From the NCBI GenBank assembly GCA_903919315.1, contig CAIXHP010000049.1:1-38794 (forward strand): a DNA stretch of 38,794 nucleotides, written 5' to 3'. This document shows, in pieces, positions 387 to 28,601 of the stretch (its first letter is position 1; every line of letters starts with the position of its first letter). The translations under genes were made by a program, and so were the position numbers. This stretch comes from an uncultured Pseudomonadota bacterium. GTDB taxonomy: Bacteria; Pseudomonadota; Alphaproteobacteria; UBA9219. A model generated the notes under the pieces. It searched no databases and was not told where the DNA came from. It worked only from the letters and a program-made list of their open reading frames with translations.

Positions 387-1127
387 TCAGAACGGCATCA
401 GCACATCAAGAACCTGACTGCCGAGGCGCGGTTGCTGCATGTCTTGGATCGTGCCGCGACCGCCGTAGGAGATGCGGGCTTCGGCGATTTGGTCGTAATT
501 CACGGTGTTTTCCGAGCTGATATCCTCAGGCCGCACCACGCCGGTGACGTTCAGTTCGCGCAGATCATAGTTGACCTCGACCTGCTGCTTGCCCGCGAGG
601 ACGAGGTTGCCGTTCGGCAGCACCTGCGTGATCGTCGCGGCGACGCGGAGGTTGATTTTTTCCGACCGATCCACCGAGCCCTTGCCGTCGTTGCTCAAAT
701 CGCTGCCCATCTTAAACAACTGTGTGGGGTCGACGGCTTTGGGAAACAGGTCTTTCAAATGGGTTTCATACCCCAGCGCGGCATCCAAATTCGCGTTCTC
801 GCTGTTCTGGCGCGAACGCTTGGTTTCGTTTTGCAGCTGCGCCTTTTCGTCGATGCTGATGACGACGGTCAGAATGTCGCCGACGCGGCTGGCGCGTTGA
901 TCGCGGAAGAAAGCGCGCGAGCCTGTCTGCCACAGCGAATTGGGCTGGCGTTCGTTGAGCGTCGGCGCGGGCATCGGCATCCGGACGGGGGACGGCCCCG
1001 CGATGTGGCTGGGGTCCTGCACCGACGCCAGCTTGGGCGCGGAGCCGACTTCGTTCAGCCGATCAAACGTATTGCAGCCGGTAAGGCCGATCAGCGCCGT
1101 CGCCACAAGAAGAAAACGAAGGGACAT
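387..1127 (-). CDS. flgH: Flagellar L-ring protein FlgH
   Basis: Outer-membrane lipoprotein that forms the L-ring around the flagellar rod. The product (246 aa) has a lipoprotein signal peptide ending in a lipobox LTGC at residues 15-18. It then shows the FlgH body, including a segment NSLWQTGSRAFFRDQRASRV that sits near the N-terminus of the mature family, and a C-terminal part with the VRPEDI and GGRGTIQDMQQP stretches typical of FlgH. An in-frame ATG at 1136 lies directly against an AAGGAT ribosome site, whereas the ATG at 1127 has that site about 8 bases away, so 1127 is preferred. It is the last gene of the flgF-flgG-flgA-flgH operon, 11 bases after the flgA stop. Length is normal for the family. 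Confidence 0.95.
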   Translation of the reverse strand: MSLRFLLVATALIGLTGCNTFDRLNEVGSAPKLASVQDPSHIAGPSPVRMPMPAPTLNERQPNSLWQTGSRAFFRDQRASRVGDILTVVISIDEKAQLQNETKRSRQNSENANLDAALGYETHLKDLFPKAVDPTQLFKMGSDLSNDGKGSVDRSEKINLRVAATITQVLPNGNLVLAGKQQVEVNYDLRELNVTGVVRPEDISSENTVNYDQIAEARISYGGRGTIQDMQQPRLGSQVLDVLMPF

Positions 1128-1138
1128 AAAAGCCATCC

Positions 1139-2113
1139 TTATGATCCGGCGTTCGCCATTTTTTGCGCCGTGTGAATGCGCACGACTCCGGTCGCTTCGA
1201 CGGTGCCTTCGACCACGCGGTTGCTCTGCGTGTTGGTGACGCGCACCACGTCGCCTTCGCCGCCGTCCTGCAACGAACGGCCCTGCGCGGTGATGAGCAT
1301 AACGGGCGTTTCGATCTTGAGCGTCACAAGACCGCCGCGCGTCACAAGGCGCGGCAGCATCACGTCGCGGTCGCGCAAGGGCTGGCCTTCGGCGACGGGG
1401 TGGCGCAACTCGCGCCCGATCAATTGCGCGGCATCGGTCACGACGTCGCCGGTCACGCGGTCGTCCGTCAGAGTCAGCCAATCGAGATCGGATTCGCCCA
1501 CCGTCGTTCCGGCCTCAAGCCGCCGCACCAGAACCGGCACGTCGCGCTTGACCGTCACGCGGCCCATCACGGGCATGACCACGGGCGACGTTCCGGCATC
1601 GGCCATCAGTTCGGCGCGGAAACGCCGGTTCGGCGCGTCATAGTCGAAATTGTTGAGCGCGAAGTCCGGCGCTTGCCCCGTGGGCAAATTGACCTCAAGC
1701 GTGCGATTGTCGAAGGCTACTTCGATTTTTCCCTTCACGTCGCGCTTCGCCAATTCGGCGACGACCGCCGTGCGGATCATGTCCTGCGTGATGCGTGTGG
1801 CGGCCCGCGTCAGAACGGAGCGGTCGCCGAGACTCTGCGGCTGCCAGTCGAGGCGATACTGCGCCGCCAGACGCGTCAGGACGCTCGTGTTATAGGTCAC
1901 GCTCTTGCCCGGCGCAGGAGCCACGGCGATGTCGCGGTCGATTCCTTCGGGCAGATTGGCGAACACGTCGCTGAGCCGGATCGCGGCGCGATCCACCTCG
2001 GCCACAGAGCGCAACGTCACCGGCTCGTCGGCGCGAACGGGCGCGGCGGCGAAGAGGGCGGCCAGCGCGAGGCCGAGGACGAATATCTGTACGAAACGAC
2101 GGGCGTTCAACAT
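1139..2113 (-). CDS. flgA: Flagellar P-ring assembly chaperone FlgA
   Basis: Periplasmic protein needed for assembly of the FlgI P-ring. The 324-aa product starts with a cleavable signal peptide (hydrophobic core, likely cut after VRA near residue 28). The C-terminal half carries the SAF/FlgA region: the segment around VPVLVRRLEAGTTVGESDL, then GRELRHPVAEGQPL, and finally the end with VRVTNTQSNRVVEGTVEATG, all typical of FlgA. A GTG at 2122 overlaps the flgG stop, but the ATG at 2113 has GAGGTG six bases upstream and is preferred. The start lies within a few bases of the flgG stop, consistent with translational coupling. Confidence 0.93.
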   Translation of the reverse strand: MLNARRFVQIFVLGLALAALFAAAPVRADEPVTLRSVAEVDRAAIRLSDVFANLPEGIDRDIAVAPAPGKSVTYNTSVLTRLAAQYRLDWQPQSLGDRSVLTRAATRITQDMIRTAVVAELAKRDVKGKIEVAFDNRTLEVNLPTGQAPDFALNNFDYDAPNRRFRAELMADAGTSPVVMPVMGRVTVKRDVPVLVRRLEAGTTVGESDLDWLTLTDDRVTGDVVTDAAQLIGRELRHPVAEGQPLRDRDVMLPRLVTRGGLVTLKIETPVMLITAQGRSLQDGGEGDVVRVTNTQSNRVVEGTVEATGVVRIHTAQKMANAGS

Positions 2114-2118
2114 TCCGA

Positions 2119-2904
2119 TCACCTCAACTGGCTGATGGTGGTGAGCATTTCGTCGGACGTCTTGATGACCTTCGAATTCATCTCATAGGCGCGTTGCGCG
2201 GTGATGAGGTTGGTAATTTCCGACACGATGTTGACGTTCGAGGTTTCCAGCGACCCCTGCACGATCGAGCCAAAGCCCGCCGCCTGCGGATTGCCGGTCA
2301 CCGGCGAGCCGGAGGATTCGGTTTCCTTTAGCAGGTTGTTGCCGATGGATTCCAGCCCGGTCGGGTTGGTAAAGGTGGCGAGTTGCAATTGCCCCAGATT
2401 GGATTGCGTCGATTGGCCGTCGATGTTGGCCAAAACTTGGCCCGCCGCGTTGATCGTGATGCCTGTGGCGTTGGACGGCACCGTGATGGAAGGAATGACC
2501 GGCAACCCTTCGGGATTGACCAACTGGCCGTCCTGATTGAGCTGCAACGATCCGGCGCGGGTATAGGCCGTCGTGCCGTCGGGGCGCTGCACCTGCAGGA
2601 ATCCGCGTCCGTTGATGGCGATGTCATAGGGATTGTTGGTGACGTTTAGGTTGCCTTGTTCGTTGATGCGATAGGTGGCCACCGGCATGACACCCAAGCC
2701 GACCTGCAAGCCCGACGGCAACAGCGTGCCGGTGTCGGACGAAGGCGAGCCGACGCGACGGAGATTTTCGTACAACATGTCCTGAAACTCGGCGCGCGAG
2801 CGCTTAAAGCCGGTGGTGGACAAGTTGGCGATGTTGTTCGAGATGACTTCGACGTTGAGCTGCTGGGCCTGCATGCCCGTCGCGCCGATGCTAAGTGACC
2901 TCAT
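2119..2904 (-). CDS. flgG: Flagellar distal rod protein FlgG
   Basis: Structural protein of the distal flagellar rod. The 261-aa product has the rod N-terminal motif MRSLSIGATGMQAQQLNVEV followed by NNIANLSTTGFK, a central FlgG/FlgE-type beta region (NPYDIAINGRGFLQV), and the rod C-terminal helix ITAQRAYEMNSKVIKTSDEM. Length matches the family exactly. A strong AGGAGA ribosome site lies six bases before the ATG. It is the second gene of the operon, 15 bases after flgF. Confidence 0.97.
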   Translation of the reverse strand: MRSLSIGATGMQAQQLNVEVISNNIANLSTTGFKRSRAEFQDMLYENLRRVGSPSSDTGTLLPSGLQVGLGVMPVATYRINEQGNLNVTNNPYDIAINGRGFLQVQRPDGTTAYTRAGSLQLNQDGQLVNPEGLPVIPSITVPSNATGITINAAGQVLANIDGQSTQSNLGQLQLATFTNPTGLESIGNNLLKETESSGSPVTGNPQAAGFGSIVQGSLETSNVNIVSEITNLITAQRAYEMNSKVIKTSDEMLTTISQLR

Positions 2905-2919
2905 TCGGTTTCTCCTGAA

Positions 2920-3660
2920 TTACGCTGACGTTCGGGCCAGCTTGTCGATGGCGTTGGTGCGGCGTTGGTTGTCGAGGTCGAGCAGATGCACCGACATCTG
3001 ATAGGCCCGCATGATTTCGATCATGTGCGTGATTTCGCTGACCGACCGGACGTTGGATTGCTCGACCGTGCCTTGCACGAGGCGGCTTTCGGTGTCCGCT
3101 TCCGGCGGTTGTGAGGATGTATAGAAACCGCTGCCGACGCTTTGCAGCGCTTGTTCGTTGGCGAATTTGACCAGCTTGAGCTTACCCACCTGCGTCATGG
3201 TCGTGCCGCCGCCGGACTTGGCGGCGATGACGCCGTCGCCGGAAATTTGCACGTCTTCGGCATCGCTGGGGAGCGTGATGGGTTGATCGCCTTCGCCTAA
3301 AACTTTGTCCCCGCCTGCGGTGATCAACTCGCCGGCACCGTTCAACTGAAACGCGCCGCCGCGCGTGTAGCGCGTGCCTTCGCGGGTCTGGATGGGGAAA
3401 TAGCCCGCGCCCTGAATGGCGACATCGAACGGATTGCCGGTGGTCAGCAACGGCCCCGCCGCCGTGTCGCGCAACGTGCCGCGTTCCACGGCAAAGTCGA
3501 TCTTTTCATTCGCCGCCGGACGGCTGACGAAAGTTTCGAACTGCAACTCTTCGCGCTTAAAGCCCGTCGTGCTGGCGTTCGCGACGTTGTTGGCCACAAC
3601 GTCGAGCGCCCGCGTCAGCGAGTCTTGTTGAGCGATGAGGACAAGCGCGGCGGCCTGCAT
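2920..3660 (-). CDS. flgF: Flagellar proximal rod protein FlgF
   Basis: Proximal rod protein, paralogue of FlgG. The 246-aa product shows the N-terminal rod motif as VVANNVANASTTGFKREELQ, the central NPFDVAIQGAGYFPIQTREG region, and a C-terminal rod helix (SEITHMIEIMRAYQMSVHLL). The first residues (MQAAALVLIAQQDSLTRALD) differ from the usual ALYVGLSRQ-type start but align in position. It is the first gene of the operon; a sigma-54 type promoter lies about 50 bases upstream, matching the class of regulation known for rod operons in Caulobacter-type flagellar hierarchies. Confidence 0.93.
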   Translation of the reverse strand: MQAAALVLIAQQDSLTRALDVVANNVANASTTGFKREELQFETFVSRPAANEKIDFAVERGTLRDTAAGPLLTTGNPFDVAIQGAGYFPIQTREGTRYTRGGAFQLNGAGELITAGGDKVLGEGDQPITLPSDAEDVQISGDGVIAAKSGGGTTMTQVGKLKLVKFANEQALQSVGSGFYTSSQPPEADTESRLVQGTVEQSNVRSVSEITHMIEIMRAYQMSVHLLDLDNQRRTNAIDKLARTSA

Positions 3661-4318: not shown

Positions 4319-4927
4319 TCACAAGCCGATTTGTTTGCCGCGCAACCAAAGCCGAAGATTGGAGACTCGCTTGTCCGGGCGGGCAGGTTGGCCATCCGGC
4401 GGGATAATCCGGTCGAAATGTTCGGTTTTGCTTAGCTTGGCTCCGAGCATGATGGCTTTCCTATTGCGCTCGAACTCCTGCGCCATGCGTTCCCATGCCG
4501 CAATGGCATCATCATAAATTTTCGGATCCTTGTTGTGGATGCACGATCTTTCGTCCGGCATGGCAAAGCCCGGTCGGGAATCGTTGGCGGGACGCACATC
4601 CCGGCTCAGAATCTCTCCATCACGGTTTTGCTTCTCAATGAACCAACCAATCTCGTTCTGGTAGGCAAGGATCGTCGCCGATCCATCGGCCGCATACAGC
4701 GTTTCTGTGTGTTGTAGCGGGAGTCTGGCGTGGCGGCCCTTGTACATCATCTCGCCGTCCAAATAGACGGTGGTGTCCACAATTTGGCTCGGTCTGCCGC
4801 CGATCATTTGCGTTTCATGGATTACGCGCGTGTAATACCCCGTTTGAGCGACAGGAGAATCCTTCGTGCGCAGTGCCGCATGACGCGAACCAAACAACCG
4901 AAAAGAGGGTTGGGATAGAGTGTTCAT
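4319..4927 (-). CDS. Unknown protein, intact member of a tandem paralogue pair
   Basis: Function unknown. The 202-aa product has no signal peptide or transmembrane segment. Recognisable blocks are TGYYTRV (about residues 29-35), TTVYLDGEMMYKGR (about 52-65) and YAADGSATI (about 77-85), followed by a charged, helix-rich second half (YDDAIAAWERMAQEFERNRK). All of these recur in the neighbouring upstream gene at 5027-5535. An AAGGAAG ribosome site lies seven bases before the ATG, a strong start. Codon and base use looks less GC-rich than the flanking flagellar and PTS genes, which fits acquisition followed by tandem duplication. No family name can be given. Confidence 0.7.
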   Translation of the reverse strand: MNTLSQPSFRLFGSRHAALRTKDSPVAQTGYYTRVIHETQMIGGRPSQIVDTTVYLDGEMMYKGRHARLPLQHTETLYAADGSATILAYQNEIGWFIEKQNRDGEILSRDVRPANDSRPGFAMPDERSCIHNKDPKIYDDAIAAWERMAQEFERNRKAIMLGAKLSKTEHFDRIIPPDGQPARPDKRVSNLRLWLRGKQIGL

Positions 4928-5026
4928 AGCTTAGCTTCCTTTGAATATACGTTTGTAATTGTAATGGTATTCCAAGTTTATGCAATAAATTGGCCTTATT
5001 ATGGCTGTTTTCACGCTGCGCGTCGG

Positions 5027-5535
5027 CTATTGGCGAAGCGCTTCCCGCAAGTATTGGCCGAAGGCGCTGGCCGGGCGTTCGGGGCCAACTTTGGCCAAAC
5101 TGATTTTTTGAATGAAATGAACGGTTGGCCCCTGAGCTGCGGCCGCGAGGATGTCGTTTCTCTGTGCTTGGAATTCGGCCATCCGTTCGGCCCAGACGTT
5201 GTCCGGCACATGATTTTTGTAGGTCGGGTTGCGCATCCCCTTGGCATCGCATGTAGCCAGACAGAGGGCCCCTTCGTAAAGGTGGCCGTGGATCCATCCG
5301 CCATATATATCCGGTTGAAGACGTGCCTGTTGTCGGCGGACTGGCGGCCACGGTAAACCAAGTCGCCATTATGATACACGGTCGTCACGGTCGAGCCGTT
5401 GCGGCGAGCATCCGGTGCCGAAACGCGAGTCACGCGGGTGTAATAACCGCTCGCGGGGATAGGGGATTCCTGTAGGCTGGCCGTAACGGCTTGGGCATGA
5501 CCGGCCCACAATGTCTTCAAAAAACCTAAGCGCAT
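5027..5535 (-). pseudogene. Frameshifted paralogue of the gene at 4319-4927
   Basis: The start is intact (GAGGGGG seven bases before the ATG at 5535). The frame encodes SGYYTRV, TTVYHNGDLVYRGR and YMADGSTATF, matching the paralogue downstream. After TATF, near 5278-5280, the original frame turns into nonsense-like Arg/Pro/Ser-rich sequence. The neighbouring frame continues the family with YEGALCLATCDAKGMRNPTY, then VWAERMAEFQAQRNDIL and a stop at 5027. One missing base in the short A-run at 5278-5280 (plus strand) explains the shift. It is either a recent pseudogene or a sequencing/assembly error. Repaired length would be about 169 aa. Confidence 0.75.
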
Positions 5536-6211: not shown

Positions 6212-6451
6212 TTACGAAGCGCGCTGATGCGGCGGCAACGTCATGCCCACTTCATGCACGGCGCGGACGATGCGTTCGCCGATGCTGCCGACGCGGGCTG
6301 CCGCTGCGGCATAGCTGGAGGAAGCGCGACGGATGGCGGCCATCGTCTTGTCGAGCGCGACCAGATTGGTTTGATTGGTCATCGCCACAAGGCGTTCGAG
6401 CGTTTCGTCGGCGGAGCCTACGGCGTACTGGAGTTCGCGTTCTTGGGCCAT
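6212..6451 (-). CDS. Small chemoreceptor-tip-like helical protein (79 aa)
   Basis: Short protein dominated by helix-forming sequence. Residues around MTNQTNLVALDKTMAAIRRA resemble the hairpin tip of methyl-accepting chemotaxis proteins, where the core is QTNxxALNAxxEAARAG. The flanks lack the remainder of a receptor: no sensor, no membrane segment, no HAMP. The start at 6451 is preceded by GGAAGAG about nine bases away; the frame could extend to 6529, but that part looks non-coding. It is divergent from the rod-like mini gene at 6674. It could be a free-standing modulator of chemosensory complexes or an unrelated helical protein with chance similarity. Confidence 0.6.
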   Translation of the reverse strand: MAQERELQYAVGSADETLERLVAMTNQTNLVALDKTMAAIRRASSSYAAAAARVGSIGERIVRAVHEVGMTLPPHQRAS

Positions 6452-6544
6452 GATAAAATCTCTTCCGGTTGCTGGTTTCTTGTTTGTCTCTTTCCGTACA
6501 TCCAACCTACAGGCGATTCTTGAATTCACAGTTAACGCAAGGGG

Positions 6545-6580
6545 TTTTTTTGGATCAAATCGTACTTTTTTTGGCTCAAA
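6545..6580. repeat. Phased direct repeat, possible operator
   Basis: Two copies of TTTTTTTGG(A/C)TCAAA at 6545-6559 and 6566-6580 have one mismatch in 15 bases and a 21-bp offset, that is two helical turns. They lie in the shared upstream region of two divergent small genes (starts at 6451 and 6674). This is what a cooperative regulator site would look like; the binding protein is unknown. Confidence 0.5.
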
Positions 6581-6626
6581 ACTTCAGGTTTTGCTAGGTA
6601 ATGTTGAGAAACTATTAAACATGATC

Positions 6627-6635
6627 TGCTATACT
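6627..6635 (+). promoter_or_regulatory. Extended -10 promoter for the 6674 gene
   Basis: TGCTATACT matches an extended -10 box (TGnTATAAT) and lies about 40 bases before the ATG at 6674. A TTGAGA upstream is spaced 20 bases away, too far for a standard -35, so activity would depend on the extended -10 or on an activator. Confidence 0.4.
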
Positions 6636-6673
6636 GACGGCTGCTCATAGGTCGAATCTCTAGGAAAACCGCC

Positions 6674-6970
6674 ATGTTCAGCGCGATTAGCTCGGCTTTG
6701 TCAGGCCTGAATGACTCGGTGTCGCGTGTCAGTAACGCGATTTCAAGCATCGTTAATGCTTCCTCAACAAGCGCCGCGCCCGCAAAAACGCGCGAAGATG
6801 CCGTGACATTGTCCGATGCAGCGTTGAACGCGCGCGATCAACAAGCGCCTGTGGATGTCACATCAAAATTGTTGGATGCCAAATTGGCGCAAGTGACGTA
6901 CAGCGCCAACGCCGCCGTTATCAAGGCGACGCTTGAGAACGATAAAAGACTGCTCGACACCTTGGCCTGA
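6674..6970 (+). CDS. Miniature flagellar-rod-like protein (98 aa)
   Basis: The protein seems to consist of only the two terminal helices of flagellar rod/hook proteins. Residues 1-32 (MFSAISSALSGLNDSVSRVS, then IVNASST) resemble the rod N-terminal motif SALSGLNxxxxRLxVxANNIANAST. Residues 60-98 align without gaps with the FlgG C-terminus in this same window: AQVTYSANAAVIKA against AQRAYEMNSKVIKT. The whole central domain is absent. A TAGGAA site lies before the ATG. It is followed 8 bases later by hprK, so it may share a transcript with it. Export or rod function is inference; similar short proteins may be annotated as flagellar basal-body rod C-terminal domain proteins. Confidence 0.75.
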   Translation: MFSAISSALSGLNDSVSRVSNAISSIVNASSTSAAPAKTREDAVTLSDAALNARDQQAPVDVTSKLLDAKLAQVTYSANAAVIKATLENDKRLLDTLA

Positions 6971-6978
6971 GGCTCGCC

Positions 6979-7404
6979 ATGTTGATTCATGCGACGTGCG
7001 TCGTCGTGGAAGATCGCGCCGTGTTGCTGGCCGCGCCGCCCGGTGGCGGCAAATCGGATGTCGCGCTGCGCTTGATCGATGCGGGAGCGCGGCTTGTGGC
7101 GGATGATCGTGTGGAATTGCGCGACGTTGACGGAGTCCTGACGGCCTTTGCGCCGCCGCCCATCGCCGGGTTGATCGAAGTGCGCCATGTGGGCGTGCTG
7201 AGCGTCCCGCACGAACCCAACGCGCCGGTGGCGCTCTATGTTGAGCTGATGCCCATGGATAGGGTGTTGGAGCGTCTGCCGGAACCTGAGCCGATCACAT
7301 TGCTGGATCACGCGGTGCGGCGGCTTCGCTTGCCCGCTTACGCGGCCTCCACGCCCGCCAAGATCCGCGCGGCGTTGCGCTATCGTCTGGAGTCGTCCGC
7401 CTAA
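6979..7404 (+). CDS. hprK: Short-type HPr kinase/phosphorylase
   Basis: Bifunctional kinase/phosphorylase acting on the regulatory serine of HPr. At 141 aa it is the short alphaproteobacterial form lacking the N-terminal domain of Firmicutes HprK. A Walker A loop APPGGGKSDVAL is at residues 19-30 (Lys25), followed by LVADD at 39-43, a typical HprK metal/phosphate site, and the VRHVGVLSVP segment. Its likely target HPr is encoded at 9771. Usually hprK lies directly before rapZ; here a minus-strand NUDIX-type gene separates them and their stop codons overlap (7401-7404). Confidence 0.93.
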   Translation: MLIHATCVVVEDRAVLLAAPPGGGKSDVALRLIDAGARLVADDRVELRDVDGVLTAFAPPPIAGLIEVRHVGVLSVPHEPNAPVALYVELMPMDRVLERLPEPEPITLLDHAVRRLRLPAYAASTPAKIRAALRYRLESSA

Positions 7405-23906: not shown

Positions 23907-24353
23907 TCACCCCCGTCGTGCCGCGAAGAAGCGTTTGAGGAGGTCGCCAGCGCGGCTTTCTTCGATGCCGCCGATGACTTCGGGGGCGTGGTGGCAGGTG
24001 GGTTGGGCGAAAAAGCGCGGGCCGTGTTCGATGCCGCCGCCTTTCGGGTCATAGGCGGCAAAGATCACGCGGCGCAATCGGGCAAAACTGATCGCCGCCG
24101 CGCACATGGCGCAAGGCTCCAGCGTCACATACAAATCGCAATCCGGCAGCCGAGGGCTGTTCCTCAACCGCGTTGCCGCCCGGATCGCCAGCATTTCGGC
24201 GTGGGCAGTGGGGTCGGTCAGCTCCTCGGTTTGGTTTCCGGCCTCGGCCAGAACCTGCCCCTCCGCCGTCACCACCACAGCCCCCACCGGCACTTCGCCG
24301 CGCCGCGCGGCAGCCTCGGCCTGTTCAAAAGCCCGTTGCATCGGATCGCTCAT
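23907..24353 (-). CDS. tadA: tRNA-specific adenosine deaminase TadA
   Basis: Converts A34 to inosine in tRNA-Arg. This 148-aa zinc deaminase has zinc ligands and the catalytic Glu in HAE (51-53) and PCAMC (80-84). It also has the substrate-site NQTEELTDPTAHAEM and the YDPKGGGIEHG loop. A GAGG site six bases before the ATG at 24353 decides the start; the frame upstream runs into the palindromic repeat and is not part of the gene. It is convergent with purD and divergent from rluB. Confidence 0.95.
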   Translation of the reverse strand: MSDPMQRAFEQAEAAARRGEVPVGAVVVTAEGQVLAEAGNQTEELTDPTAHAEMLAIRAATRLRNSPRLPDCDLYVTLEPCAMCAAAISFARLRRVIFAAYDPKGGGIEHGPRFFAQPTCHHAPEVIGGIEESRAGDLLKRFFAARRG

Positions 24354-24386
24354 GTTGTGCCTCAACCATTTGAAAACGCACGAAAG

Positions 24387-24504
24387 CCCTCCCCCCTTGG
24401 GGGGAGGGTTGGGTGGGGGGTCGACGTTAGGGATAAACCTGCAAAGATCACCTCCGGCGGAACCCACCCCCCACCTAGCCTCCCCCCAAGGGGGGAGGGA
24501 GGGC
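24387..24504. repeat. Inverted GC-rich palindromic repeat between tadA and rluB
   Basis: The left arm (24387-24421) and right arm (about 24462-24504) are near reverse complements. Each arm contains its own palindrome built from CCCTCCCCCC and GGGGGGAGGG, followed by TTGGGTGGGGGGT or its complement. The arms flank a 39-base linker. The same arms occur several times inside waaA (27289-27772), so this is a dispersed repeat family. Confidence 0.85.
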
Positions 24505-24582
24505 GCTCCTTCTTATCGTAAAACGCTAAAAAATCACGACCTATCGTTGTTTCTTCACAGTTTTTCCCCTACAGTCCCCACC

Positions 24583-25353
24583 ATGACTGAAAAAGCAGAG
24601 AAAATCGAGCCTGCAAAAGGCGAACGAATTGCCAAGGTTCTGGCCCGCGCGGGCGTAGCCTCGCGGCGCGAGGTGGAGCGCATGATTGCCGAGGGCCGCG
24701 TGACGGTGGACGGCAAGATCATCCCGTCGCCCGCGCTGAACGTCACGGCGGCGAACCGCATCGCCGTGGACGACAAACCCGTGGCCGCCGCCGAGGAAGC
24801 CCGCGTCTGGCGCTATCACAAAAGCCCCGGAACGCTGACGACCAACAGCGACCCGCAAGGCCGCCCGACGATCTTTGAGAAACTCCCGCCGGAACTCCCC
24901 CGCGTCGTGACCATCGGACGGCTGGACTACAACACCGAAGGCCTGTTGCTGTTGACCAACGACGGCGAGCTGGCGCGGCATTTGGAATTGCCCAAGCACG
25001 CTTGGCTGCGGCATTACCGCGTGCGGGTCTACGGCTGGGTCGACGTGGCCAAGCTGAAAAAGCTAGAAGACGGCGCCACCATCGACGGCGTGCATTACGA
25101 GCCGATCAAGGCCGAGCTGGAAACCGAAAAGCAGGAAGGCTCCAACAGCTGGCTGTCGGTCAGCATCCGCGAAGGCAAAAACCGCGAGATTCGCCGCGTG
25201 ATGGAGCATCTGGATTTGGAAGTCACGCGCCTGATCCGCGTCGCTTTCGGCCCGTTCCAGCTCGGCAAATTGGTGCGCGGCGGCGTTGAAGAAGTGCCGC
25301 GCCGAATCTTGCGTGAATCGCTGGGCAACTTCTTCAAGGAACTCGGCAAGTAA
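24583..25353 (+). CDS. rluB: Ribosomal large subunit pseudouridine synthase RluB-like
   Basis: Pseudouridine synthase of the RsuA/RluB family, 256 aa. It has an N-terminal S4 RNA-binding domain (ERIAKVLARAGVASRREVER and GRVTVDGKII) followed by the catalytic domain with the Asp motif TIGRLDYNTEGLLLLTNDGE. Then come LPKHAWLRHYRV and SIREGKNREIRRVMEHLDLE. The RluB assignment over RluE/RsuA comes from length and the rluB-rsmD neighbourhood. The ATG at 24583 opens the S4 domain; an upstream extension crosses the palindromic repeat and is rejected. Confidence 0.9.
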   Translation: MTEKAEKIEPAKGERIAKVLARAGVASRREVERMIAEGRVTVDGKIIPSPALNVTAANRIAVDDKPVAAAEEARVWRYHKSPGTLTTNSDPQGRPTIFEKLPPELPRVVTIGRLDYNTEGLLLLTNDGELARHLELPKHAWLRHYRVRVYGWVDVAKLKKLEDGATIDGVHYEPIKAELETEKQEGSNSWLSVSIREGKNREIRRVMEHLDLEVTRLIRVAFGPFQLGKLVRGGVEEVPRRILRESLGNFFKELGK

Positions 25354-25919: not shown

Positions 25920-26862
25920 TCACGCGCTTTAGCGCCGCTTCGTCCTCGAACGTCAAAGTCACGGGCAACACCGCGACCTGCGCCCGAAAGGCATCGGGGA
26001 GGCGCACCCAGTCCTTGGCCGTGGTGATGAGGCGGAGGTTCTGCGCCTTGGCCTGTTCCGCCAGCGCGGCGAGTTCCGGCGGCGTGAACAGGTGATGATC
26101 GGGGAAATCCTTTGTGACGGCCAACGCCAGCCCCGCCTCGCGGCACGAGGCATAAAATTTCGCAGGCCGTCCGATTCCGGCAAAAGCGAGGAACGCGCCG
26201 TCGCGCGGAAAATCGTCGGACAACGCAGAAGTCAATTGCGCCTGAAGGACGGGGATTTTGCGGGCAAAGGGCAGGGGCCGCGCCAGAGCGCCGATCACGA
26301 TCACCGCGTCCAACCGCTTGGTCGCCTCGATGAAATCTTCGCGCAGCGGCCCGGCGGGAATGATCGCGCCGTTGCCGAGTCCCGTCGCGCCGTCGATGAC
26401 GCACAGCTTGACGCTCGGCGCGATGGTCGGGTTCTGCAAGCCGTCGTCGAGGATGATATGCGTCGCCTGCGGCGCGGCGGCGCGGATCGCGGCGGCGCGG
26501 TCGCGCCCGATCCAGCACGGCGCGGCGCAAGCCAGCAGCAACGCTTCGTCGCCGACATCGCGCGCGCTGTGGCGGTCGGGATCGACGCGCAACGGCCCGG
26601 CTTCCATCCCGCCATAGCCGCGCGTGACGAAAACCGGTTGAGCGCCCGTTTGCTGCAACAGCCGCGCCAGCGCGAGCGCGGTCGGCGTTTTTCCGGCCCC
26701 GCCCGCCACGACATTGCCGACGCAGATGACAGGAATAGCGGCGCGGTAAGGCCGCGCAAAGGCGCGGCGGATTTCGGCGGCCATTTCATAAACGCGGCCA
26801 AAGGGCATGAGCAACGCGGCGCAAAGGCCAAAGGGGCGGTACCAAAAAGCGGGCGCTTTCAT
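25906..26862 (-). CDS. lpxK: Tetraacyldisaccharide 4'-kinase LpxK
   Basis: Phosphorylates the 4' position of the lipid A precursor at the inner membrane. The 318-aa product has an N-terminal amphipathic/hydrophobic region, then the P-loop GNVVAGGAGKTPTALAL (49-65, Lys58), followed by VTRGYGG, VGDEALLLA, IILDDGLQNP and ITTAKDWVRL, all family hallmarks. Start at the ATG at 26862 with AGGAG eight bases upstream; it overlaps the waaA stop as ATGA, so the two are translationally coupled. Confidence 0.95.
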   Translation of the reverse strand: MKAPAFWYRPFGLCAALLMPFGRVYEMAAEIRRAFARPYRAAIPVICVGNVVAGGAGKTPTALALARLLQQTGAQPVFVTRGYGGMEAGPLRVDPDRHSARDVGDEALLLACAAPCWIGRDRAAAIRAAAPQATHIILDDGLQNPTIAPSVKLCVIDGATGLGNGAIIPAGPLREDFIEATKRLDAVIVIGALARPLPFARKIPVLQAQLTSALSDDFPRDGAFLAFAGIGRPAKFYASCREAGLALAVTKDFPDHHLFTPPELAALAEQAKAQNLRLITTAKDWVRLPDAFRAQVAVLPVTLTFEDEAALKRVIRTA

Positions 26863-28601
26863 GGCGTTTTCTCCTGCGCGAGCCACGGATCCAACAGGCG
26901 AAGCGTTGCGTCCAGAACATGGCTCTGGCGTTCCGCCACGGCGCGGGCGGCGGCGGCAAGAGCGGCCGCTTCCTCCGGCGCGGCCAGCAGACGCGCCAGC
27001 GCCGTGGCCAGCTCGTCGGGCGCGGCCACTTGCAGGGCGGCGTTGTGCTGCACAAGGTCGGCGGCGATTTCGGCGAAGTTGGGCATGCAGGGGCCAAAGA
27101 CCATGGCGCAGCCGAGTTGCGCAGGCTCCACCGGATTATGCCCGCCCCAAGTGAAGGATCCGCCCAAACATGTCACCGATGCCAGCCGATAAAACAGCCC
27201 CAGTTCCCCCATCGTGTCGGCGAGATAGATTTGCGTGGCGGGGGTAATGTCCTGATGCTGGGAACGACGAACGCAAACGTCACGCACCCCCTCCCCAACC
27301 CTCCCCTCAAGGGGGAGGGAGCCCCGAAAGCCCTCCTCCAATTCCTCCCCCCTTGAGGGGGAGGTTAGGTGGGGGGTGGCTTCCGCATGTACGGACGTTG
27401 CAGGACGAGCGTCCACAGACCCCCCACCCAACCCTCCCCCCAGAGGGGGAGGGCTTTGCAGTGTGCTGCTCTGTCTCCTCCCGGAATCCCCCCCCAATTC
27501 CTCCCCCCTTGAGGGGGAGGTTAGGTGGGGGGTAGTTTCCGCATGCACGGACGCATCAGGACGAGCGTCCACAGACCCCCCAACTAACCCTCCACACAGA
27601 GGGGTAGGGCTTTGCAGTGTGCCGCTCTGTCCCCTCCCGGAATCCCTCCCTAATTCCTCCCCCCTTGAGGGGGAGGTTAGGTGGGGGGTGGTTTCCGCAA
27701 GCGCGGACGCATCAGGACGAGCGTCCAGAGACCCCCCACCCAACCCTCCCCCCAGAGGGGGAGGGTTTTGCAGGAGGGCCTTAATGGCTCCGCCGCGCTC
27801 GGCGTGGCGTGGGACAATGATGGTCAAAAGGTCGGGCCAGCGCCTGCGCAGCATTTGGTGCGCGTCCAGCGCGATTTGCTCCTCGCCCGGATGCGTGGAG
27901 GCCATCACCCATACCTTGCGCCCGCCGATCTGGGCCTTCAGGCGGCGCAATTCCGCTTCGTCGCAGGGCAGCGGCTCGGCGGCGAATTTGAGATTGCCGA
28001 CGTAGCGCATGTCGCGCAACCCCAGCGCGGCAAAGCGTTGGCGCTCGACTTCGGTTTGCGCCAAACCCAACGCGAACGCGCCGAGCAGCTCCCGCGCCCA
28101 GCTTTTCACAAAGCTCCATTGGCGAAAGGATTTCTCCGACATGCGCCCGTTCAGCAGAACCGCCGGAACGGCGCGGCGGCGCAGAGCGGTCAGCATGTTG
28201 GGCCACAGTTCGGACTCGACCCACAAAGCCAGATCAGGCCGCCAATGATCGAGAAAGCGCGTCACATAAGCCCAGCGATCCACCGGGACATACTGATGAA
28301 ACACGCCCGGCGGCAGGCGCGAGGCCAACAGCTGCGCGGACGTGACCGTGCCGGTGGTCAGAAGAATGCTCCAGTGCGGATAGGCGCGGCGCAGGGCTTT
28401 GGCGAGGCTTAAAACCGACATGGCCTCGCCGACGCTGGCGGCATGGCACCAAACCAGCTTGCCCGCAGGACGCGCTGCCGAAGCGTAGCCGAGCCGTTCG
28501 GGAAAACGCGCCGGATCCTCGCGCCCCTTGGCGCGACGGCGGCGCAAGACGAGCGCAATCGCCGGTGCGCCGAGGTCGGTCAGAACGCGGTAAAGCCACA
28601 T
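26859..28601 (-). CDS. waaA: Kdo transferase WaaA with an in-frame repeat insertion
   Basis: Adds Kdo to lipid IVA; inner-membrane-associated GT-B glycosyltransferase. Residues 1 to about 275 are the N-terminal domain (MWLYRVLTDLGAPAIALVLR, then WCHAASVGEAMSVLSLAKAL with the catalytic-type Glu, and YVPVDRWAYVTRFLDHWRPD). The C-terminal domain resumes near residue 440 with IYLADTMGELGLFYRLASVT and GGHNPVEPAQLGCAMVFGP. Between them about 160 residues are Pro/Gly/Ser-rich and come from 156-bp palindromic tandem repeats. Without the insertion the length would be the normal 420 or so. Both catalytic halves stay in one frame, so the protein may still be functional with a long loop. Coupled to lpxK by an ATGA overlap. 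Confidence 0.92.
   Translation of the reverse strand: MWLYRVLTDLGAPAIALVLRRRRAKGREDPARFPERLGYASAARPAGKLVWCHAASVGEAMSVLSLAKALRRAYPHWSILLTTGTVTSAQLLASRLPPGVFHQYVPVDRWAYVTRFLDHWRPDLALWVESELWPNMLTALRRRAVPAVLLNGRMSEKSFRQWSFVKSWARELLGAFALGLAQTEVERQRFAALGLRDMRYVGNLKFAAEPLPCDEAELRRLKAQIGGRKVWVMASTHPGEEQIALDAHQMLRRRWPDLLTIIVPRHAERGGAIKALLQNPPPLGGGLGGGSLDARPDASALAETTPHLTSPSRGEELGRDSGRGQSGTLQSPTPLCGGLVGGSVDARPDASVHAETTPHLTSPSRGEELGGDSGRRQSSTLQSPPPLGGGLGGGSVDARPATSVHAEATPHLTSPSRGEELEEGFRGSLPLEGRVGEGVRDVCVRRSQHQDITPATQIYLADTMGELGLFYRLASVTCLGGSFTWGGHNPVEPAQLGCAMVFGPCMPNFAEIAADLVQHNAALQVAAPDELATALARLLAAPEEAAALAAAARAVAERQSHVLDATLRLLDPWLAQEKTP
27289..27772. repeat. 156-bp tandem repeats with nested palindromes inside waaA
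   Basis: Two full units start at 27341 and 27497 and a third, partial one starts at 27653; the offset is exactly 156 bases (52 codons) each time. A more diverged half-unit lies at 27289-27340. Each unit has the two inverted GC-rich arms known from 24387-24504, and between them a second dyad GGACGC/GCGTCC. No unit has a stop in the waaA frame, so each adds 52 residues. Confidence 0.92.

What the first reader, a model, noticed from the sequence alone, without database searches (positions are those of the whole stretch)
6674..6970. Miniature rod-like protein made only of flagellar terminal helices
A 98-aa protein carries both the N-terminal rod motif (SALSGLN, then NASST) and a C-terminal helix aligning without gaps to FlgG (AQxxYxxNxxVIK), with the whole central domain missing. 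It could cap, regulate or compete in rod/hook assembly, or be a secreted assembly regulator. It sits by the PTS kinase gene instead of in a flagellar operon.
Basis: partly seen in the sequence, partly recalled or inferred. Interest (0 to 1): 0.6.

Follow-up and report, generated by a model that had tools for sequence, protein, structure and literature searches.

The report
Shrunken copy of flagellar rod protein
The gene encodes a cut-down copy of the flagellar rod protein FlgC that keeps only its two end helices; it is one of many poorly studied relatives across the Proteobacteria, and here it sits back to back with a second miniature protein resembling the tip of a chemotaxis receptor, both behind promoters of the kind that switch on swimming genes.

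Summary
The ORF is real: 98 aa, conserved ribosome-binding site, relatives under purifying selection (dN/dS about 0.08 for one pair). No family model recognises it alone, but profiles of its relatives do. The closest known protein is FlgC, not FlgG: 132-136 aa orthologues align with FlgC over 128 columns (E 1e-17), and shorter ones, including this, lack only the middle. The family splits from canonical FlgC by a fully supported branch. It has lost the Phe conserved in 35/35 FlgC and critical for FlgC assembly in Salmonella, while the export-signal region is kept. Canonical FlgC is elsewhere in the genome. Similar orphans occur across Proteobacteria, in genomes with other rod or hook genes; RefSeq calls some 'flagellar basal body rod C-terminal domain-containing protein'. 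hprK lies 8 bp downstream, but flgFGAH is only 3 kb away. The most conserved neighbour is a divergent 79-aa protein related to the MCP hairpin tip. Two mirror-image CtrA-type promoters between them occur in 20-21 of 21 genomes. Likely role: CtrA-timed, early-exported two-helix accessory of the proximal rod, FliE-like (inferred). No function was tested.

The parts
6674..6970 (+). 98-aa reduced FlgC paralogue (the finding)
6677..6769 (+). N-terminal helix, residues 2-32 (AF2), with the SALSGLN and IVNASST segments; includes the region equivalent to FlgC 5-14 needed for export in Salmonella
   Evidence: PMC9307174
6857..6964 (+). C-terminal helix, residues 62-97 (AF2), containing VTYSANAAVIKATLENDKRLLDTL
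6662..6667 (+). Shine-Dalgarno-like AGGAAA; the AGGAAAACCGCCATG leader recurs in relatives
6604..6635 (+). CtrA-type promoter for the finding: TTGA-N7-TTAA (6604-6618), N11, TATACT (6630-6635)
   Evidence: full pattern in 20 of 21 genomes, 21 of 21 up to the TA
6504..6535 (-). mirror-image CtrA-type promoter for the divergent gene: TTAA-N7-TTCA, N11, TAGGTT
   Evidence: 21 of 21 genomes
6212..6451 (-). 79-aa divergent partner gene related to the MCP signalling-hairpin tip, very strongly conserved
6979..7404 (+). hprK (HPr kinase, C-terminal domain form), 8 bp downstream; adjacency conserved in part of the relatives
387..3660 (-). flgF-flgG-flgA-flgH operon, about 3 kb from the finding

Best explanation
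The gene encodes a reduced paralogue of the proximal-rod protein FlgC, consisting of the two terminal helices that form domain D0 in axial proteins, joined by a short disordered linker. Shown here: descent from a FlgC-like paralogue family distinct from the genome's own FlgC; loss of the FlgC middle and of the assembly-critical Phe; purifying selection in the family; a CtrA-type promoter region shared, back to back, with an MCP-tip-like gene. Inferred: CtrA switches it on together with flagellar and motility genes; the retained N-terminal region sends it through the flagellar export gate as an early substrate; there its two helices pack onto the proximal axial structure (FliE/FlgB/FlgC) much as the D0 helices of FliE do, adjusting export-gate opening or proximal-rod assembly, without replacing FlgC.
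For: Profile of the family hits FlgC best among solved structures (E 1.6e-9); members match TIGR01395 FlgC up to 5e-18; long members align to FlgC over 128 columns (E 1.4e-17), short ones at both ends (E 4.4e-8, controls 0.007 or worse). Paralogues and canonical FlgC fall on opposite sides of a 100/99 branch. Canonical flgB-flgC-fliE is on contig C59. At the FlgC F49 position FlgC has Phe in 35/35; no long paralogue has it; F49 is critical for assembly, less so for secretion, and FlgC residues 5-14 matter for secretion in Salmonella (PMC9307174). FliE shows that a small protein can act in the axis through a two-helix D0 (PMC8546590). All 69 class genomes with a family-profile hit also have a FlgC-model hit; the 110 genomes without the latter have none. 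CtrA-type promoter in 20/21 genomes; CtrA homologue present, 71% identity; such boxes drive divergent flagellar promoters in Rhodobacter (PMC6180460). AF2 gives two long helices.
Against: No functional data. The AF2 model is only moderately confident (pLDDT 69, pTM 0.41) and Foldseek finds no significant PDB match. Six of 33 genomes of the order, all with a FlgC-type hit, lack the small paralogue or were missed (three of the six are at most 82% complete), so it is not essential for a flagellum. The other genome-wide matches to the promoter pattern lie upstream of non-flagellar genes. The FlgC-model hits used for co-occurrence can include the paralogue itself; G101, G256 and G311 have no strong FlgC hit.
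Confidence: 0.5

Rival explanations
1. It stays in the cytoplasm as a decoy or brake: its FlgC-like ends occupy the substrate sites of FlhB/FlhA or bind FlgB/FlgC, so that export of rod subunits is delayed until the right stage of the cell cycle.
For: Loss of the assembly Phe with retention of the N-terminal segment (PMC9307174), a CtrA-type promoter, and fast sequence divergence of the linker.
Against: A decoy would not obviously need conservation of both helices including the ANAxVIK segment; no direct evidence for either location.
Confidence: 0.2
2. It is no longer a flagellar component but a partner of its neighbours: the MCP-tip-like protein (a CtrA-coregulated motility or chemotaxis module) or the HprK/PTS-Ntr operon with which it may be cotranscribed.
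For: Head-to-head order with the 79-aa gene in all genomes of families f1 and f3 where both were found, with mirror promoters; hprK or EIIA/HPr adjacency in f1, f2, f3, f103 and f104; hprK starts 8 bp downstream.
Against: Each occurs without the other (f2 genomes lack the 79-aa gene nearby, G003 and L137-L140 lack the rod-like gene nearby), and class-wide relatives have scattered neighbours. Restriction to genomes with rod/hook genes argues for a flagellar tie.
Confidence: 0.2
3. It is a decaying duplicate of FlgC without function, on the way to loss; the short forms are remnants.
For: Length series 136, 109, 98, 85, 72 aa, and a frame-broken copy in G025; low identity (37% mean); absence from some genomes.
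Against: dN/dS about 0.08 between L055 and L057 (both are long forms), fixed 72-aa forms in many genomes with intact ends, and promoter retained in 20/21.
Confidence: 0.07
4. Chance similarity of a low-complexity helical ORF to rod proteins.
For: The single sequence has no significant family hit.
Against: Profile matches with shuffled and reversed controls, FlgC-like full-length orthologues, and no match between this family and another small helical family used as a control (E 0.014).
Confidence: 0.02

Closest known systems
FlgC, proximal-rod protein (TIGR01395; PDB 7bin and others)
   Same: Both terminal helices; in the long orthologues the whole length including the YxPxD and PNVD regions
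   Different: Middle segment lost in this member; F49-position Phe absent in the family; far below the FlgC curated cut-off; separate branch from the genome's canonical FlgC
RefSeq 'flagellar basal body rod C-terminal domain-containing protein' orphans (e.g. Azospirillum WP_111068137.1, WP_109331458.1)
   Same: Stand-alone small FlgC-like proteins outside flagellar operons, uncharacterised
   Different: The Azospirillum ones are about 135 aa and keep the middle; this one has 98 aa
FliE, rod/MS-ring adaptor
   Same: Small axial protein whose two helices form a D0 domain; precedent for how the finding could work
   Different: No sequence relationship shown; FliE has an additional N-terminal helix that binds the MS-ring; the genome has its own FliE
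FlgE/FlgF/FlgG end segments (PF00460, PF06429)
   Same: General rod/hook terminal motifs
   Different: Large central domains; weaker similarity than FlgC overall

Membership tests
FlgC (TIGR01395) | score above the curated cut-off (102.1 bits) | tested here: not met
   P0001 no hit; a long orthologue reaches 58 bits
FlgC (TIGR01395) | full length of about 134-139 aa with the middle segment | tested here: not met
   98 aa; middle absent although present in long orthologues
FlgC (TIGR01395) | Phe at the F49 position | tested here: not met
   absent in this protein; 35/35 FlgC have F, no long paralogue does
FlgC (TIGR01395) | located in flgB-flgC-fliE operon | tested here: not met
   that operon is on contig C59 with its own FlgC
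flagellar rod/hook axial superfamily (PF00460 + PF06429) | N- and C-terminal axial helices | tested here: met
   by profile, not by single sequence; Flg_bbr_C found in 8 and Flg_bb_rod in 2 of 13 members
flagellar rod/hook axial superfamily (PF00460 + PF06429) | export by the flagellar type III system and assembly in the axis | not testable with these tools
   needs secretion assay and basal-body purification
small orphan 'flagellar basal body rod C-terminal domain-containing' proteins | stand-alone small ORF with both axial ends, outside flagellar operons, in genomes with rod/hook genes | tested here: met
CtrA-controlled promoter | TTAA-N7-TTAA near -35 with a -10 box downstream | tested here: met
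   one-base variants of the box on both strands, conserved in 20-21 of 21 genomes; CtrA binding itself not testable here

The most novel reading that the evidence does not exclude
A CtrA-timed two-gene motility module in which a D0-only rod mimic and a chemoreceptor-tip-only protein act as small adaptors, for example tying the start of rod export at the new pole to assembly or occupancy of the chemoreceptor array.
Probability: 0.12. Interest if true: 0.75.

Novelty: new variant of a known kind. Interest (0 to 1): 0.45.

Why it matters
The proximal axis of the flagellum is thought to be made by a fixed set of proteins (FliE, FlgB, FlgC, FlgF, FlgG). A widespread set of shrunken FlgC copies that keep the export end and the packing helices but have lost the assembly residue would point to an overlooked layer of control at the base of the flagellum, open to test with simple deletions. 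The conserved pairing with a receptor-tip-like protein behind mirror CtrA-type promoters gives a concrete entry point.

Tried and rejected
Single-sequence searches in Pfam, NCBIfam and PDB: no significant hit, uninformative. Foldseek with both models: no significant match, as expected for short helices of moderate confidence. Rfam on 6400-7000: nothing. Sigma-70 scan: nothing in the region. A test of whether the CtrA-type pattern marks flagellar genes genome-wide: 11 forward-type sites against 0 for the reversed pattern, but the other genes downstream are not flagellar, so the promoter alone is not used as proof of a flagellar role. Literature searches for a described small FlgC-like protein: none found in the open-access library held. 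Plasmid searches with short forms: no match. Considered and rejected: FlgG as closest relative; chance; hprK as the main functional clue, because linkage is patchy.

Full report
Observation. The ORF 6674-6970(+) is 98 codons with an ATG and AGGAAA upstream. Alone it scores with no rod model in Pfam, reaches only E 0.04 to the FlgE C-terminus in NCBIfam and finds nothing in the PDB. Relatives from the same GTDB family and order change this. An alignment of 13 gives FlgC as best PDB match (7bin chain V, E 1.6e-9), and members match TIGR01395 FlgC down to 5e-18 and Flg_bbr_C in 8 of 13 cases.

Identity. Members range from 136 to 72 aa. The 132-136 aa ones look like complete FlgC, including the Y-P-D and SPxANxxGxxAxPNVD regions; the window protein and the shorter ones have lost the middle and keep both ends. 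Profile comparison against FlgC from the same order: long set E 1.4e-17 over 128 columns; short set alone E 4.4e-8; ten column shuffles and the reversed alignment 0.007 or worse. A tree of long paralogues from this order and the wider class with 35 canonical FlgC separates them with 100/99 support (a few long branches are uncertain inside the paralogue half). The genome keeps a canonical flgB-flgC-fliE on another contig and flgE, flgK, flgL on a third.

A diagnostic residue. In Salmonella FlgC, F49 is critical for assembly but less so for secretion, and residues 5-14 matter for secretion (PMC9307174). At the matching position 35/35 canonical FlgC have Phe, while no long paralogue does (T, S, Q or others; the position was located by counting from a conserved Tyr, so it is unsure in the few sequences where that Tyr shifts). 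The segment is gone in the window protein. The family therefore does not qualify as FlgC, though it derives from a FlgC-like ancestor.

Distribution. In the order, 27 of 33 genomes have the paralogue besides FlgC (my count). In a class-wide sample of 289 genomes, all 69 with a family-profile hit at E 1e-7 also have a FlgC-model hit, and none of the 110 without one has a family hit. Some of the 69 are canonical FlgC or long hook proteins rather than the paralogue. Short two-ended proteins also occur outside the Alphaproteobacteria. Azospirillum examples are annotated as 'flagellar basal body rod C-terminal domain-containing protein'. Selection: dN 0.068, dS 0.87 between two long-form relatives.

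Neighbourhood. flgF-flgG-flgA-flgH lies 3 kb left; the same operon is near the pair in G014 (L057), and in three genomes of family f44 the paralogue lies about 5 kb from flgB-flgC-fliE. hprK starts 8 bp downstream, and hprK or PTS genes adjoin the paralogue in families f1 (part), f2, f3 (G025), f103 and f104. The most constant neighbour is a divergent gene at 6212-6451(-), 79 aa, head to head in all the f1 and f3 genomes where both were found. It has no Pfam or NCBIfam family but 74% mean identity with 38 invariant columns, and its profile matches the hairpin tip of methyl-accepting chemotaxis proteins (QTNLVALDKTMAAIRRA against QTNLLALNATIEAARAG; hhalign E 4.8e-9, twenty shuffles 0.054 or worse). 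The genome has eight full chemoreceptor hits above the MCPsignal cut-off.

Promoters. The 222-bp gap between the two genes is conserved. It holds TTGA-N7-TTAA-N11-TAnnnT towards the finding (20 of 21 genomes; 21 of 21 up to TA) and TTAA-N7-TT(C/T/A)A-N11-TAnnnT towards the partner (21 of 21); mononucleotide shuffles give 0.01 genomes on average. This is the layout of CtrA-activated promoters, whose full site is TTAA-N7-TTAA near -35, known from divergent flagellar promoters of Rhodobacter (PMC6180460). A CtrA homologue (71% identity to the Caulobacter sequence, which I supplied from memory) is present. The pattern has 11 forward-type matches in the genome against 0 for its reverse, mostly upstream of non-flagellar genes, so it marks a regulon, not specifically a flagellar one. 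CtrA binding is not shown.

Structure. AF2 gives helices 2-32 and 62-97 with a disordered linker (pLDDT 69); the partner gives a helical hairpin-like model (pLDDT 79). Foldseek finds nothing significant for either.

Mechanism. Most likely, with modest confidence: a CtrA-timed early export substrate that acts at the proximal axis through a two-helix D0, as FliE's D0 does (PMC8546590), as accessory or modulator rather than as rod subunit. Steps shown: ancestry, reduction, selection in the family, promoter layout, co-occurrence with rod/hook genes. Steps inferred: export, site of action, partners, regulation by CtrA. Cytoplasmic decoy and partner-of-neighbour models remain open.

Taxonomy.

Noticed in passing
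window 6212-6451 (-): 79-aa protein, 74% mean identity across its relatives, related to the signalling-hairpin tip of chemotaxis receptors and lacking everything else of a receptor; the Glu residues of the tip (IEAARAGE) are not kept. No Pfam or NCBIfam family.
   Followed up: partly
window 6504-6635: Two mirror-image CtrA-type promoters in one intergenic region, conserved in 21 genomes; about 11 sites of this type in the whole genome.
   Followed up: yes
window 27323-27773, inside ORF 26859-28601 (-): A 156-bp unit repeated 2.9 times in frame inside the KDO-transferase (waaA-type) gene, between its two Pfam domains; similar PPPLGGGLGGG text occurs in ORF 24106-25353.
   Followed up: partly
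window 4319-4927 and 5011-5535 (-): Two neighbouring ORFs without Pfam hits that share a 66-aa stretch (35% identity, E 1e-9), apparently tandem paralogues.
   Followed up: partly
L074 5193-5622: In G025 the rod-like paralogue is split over two overlapping frames (frameshift or sequencing error).
   Followed up: no
L060, gap between the two divergent genes: The gap is 457 bp instead of about 220 and contains an inverted repeat (CATTCCCGCGAAAGCGGGAATC and complement), probably a small mobile repeat inserted between promoter and gene.
   Followed up: no
L137, L138, L140: In more distant genomes the MCP-tip-like gene stays next to an EVE-domain gene and an acetyl-CoA-synthetase-like gene without the rod-like gene nearby.
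   Followed up: no
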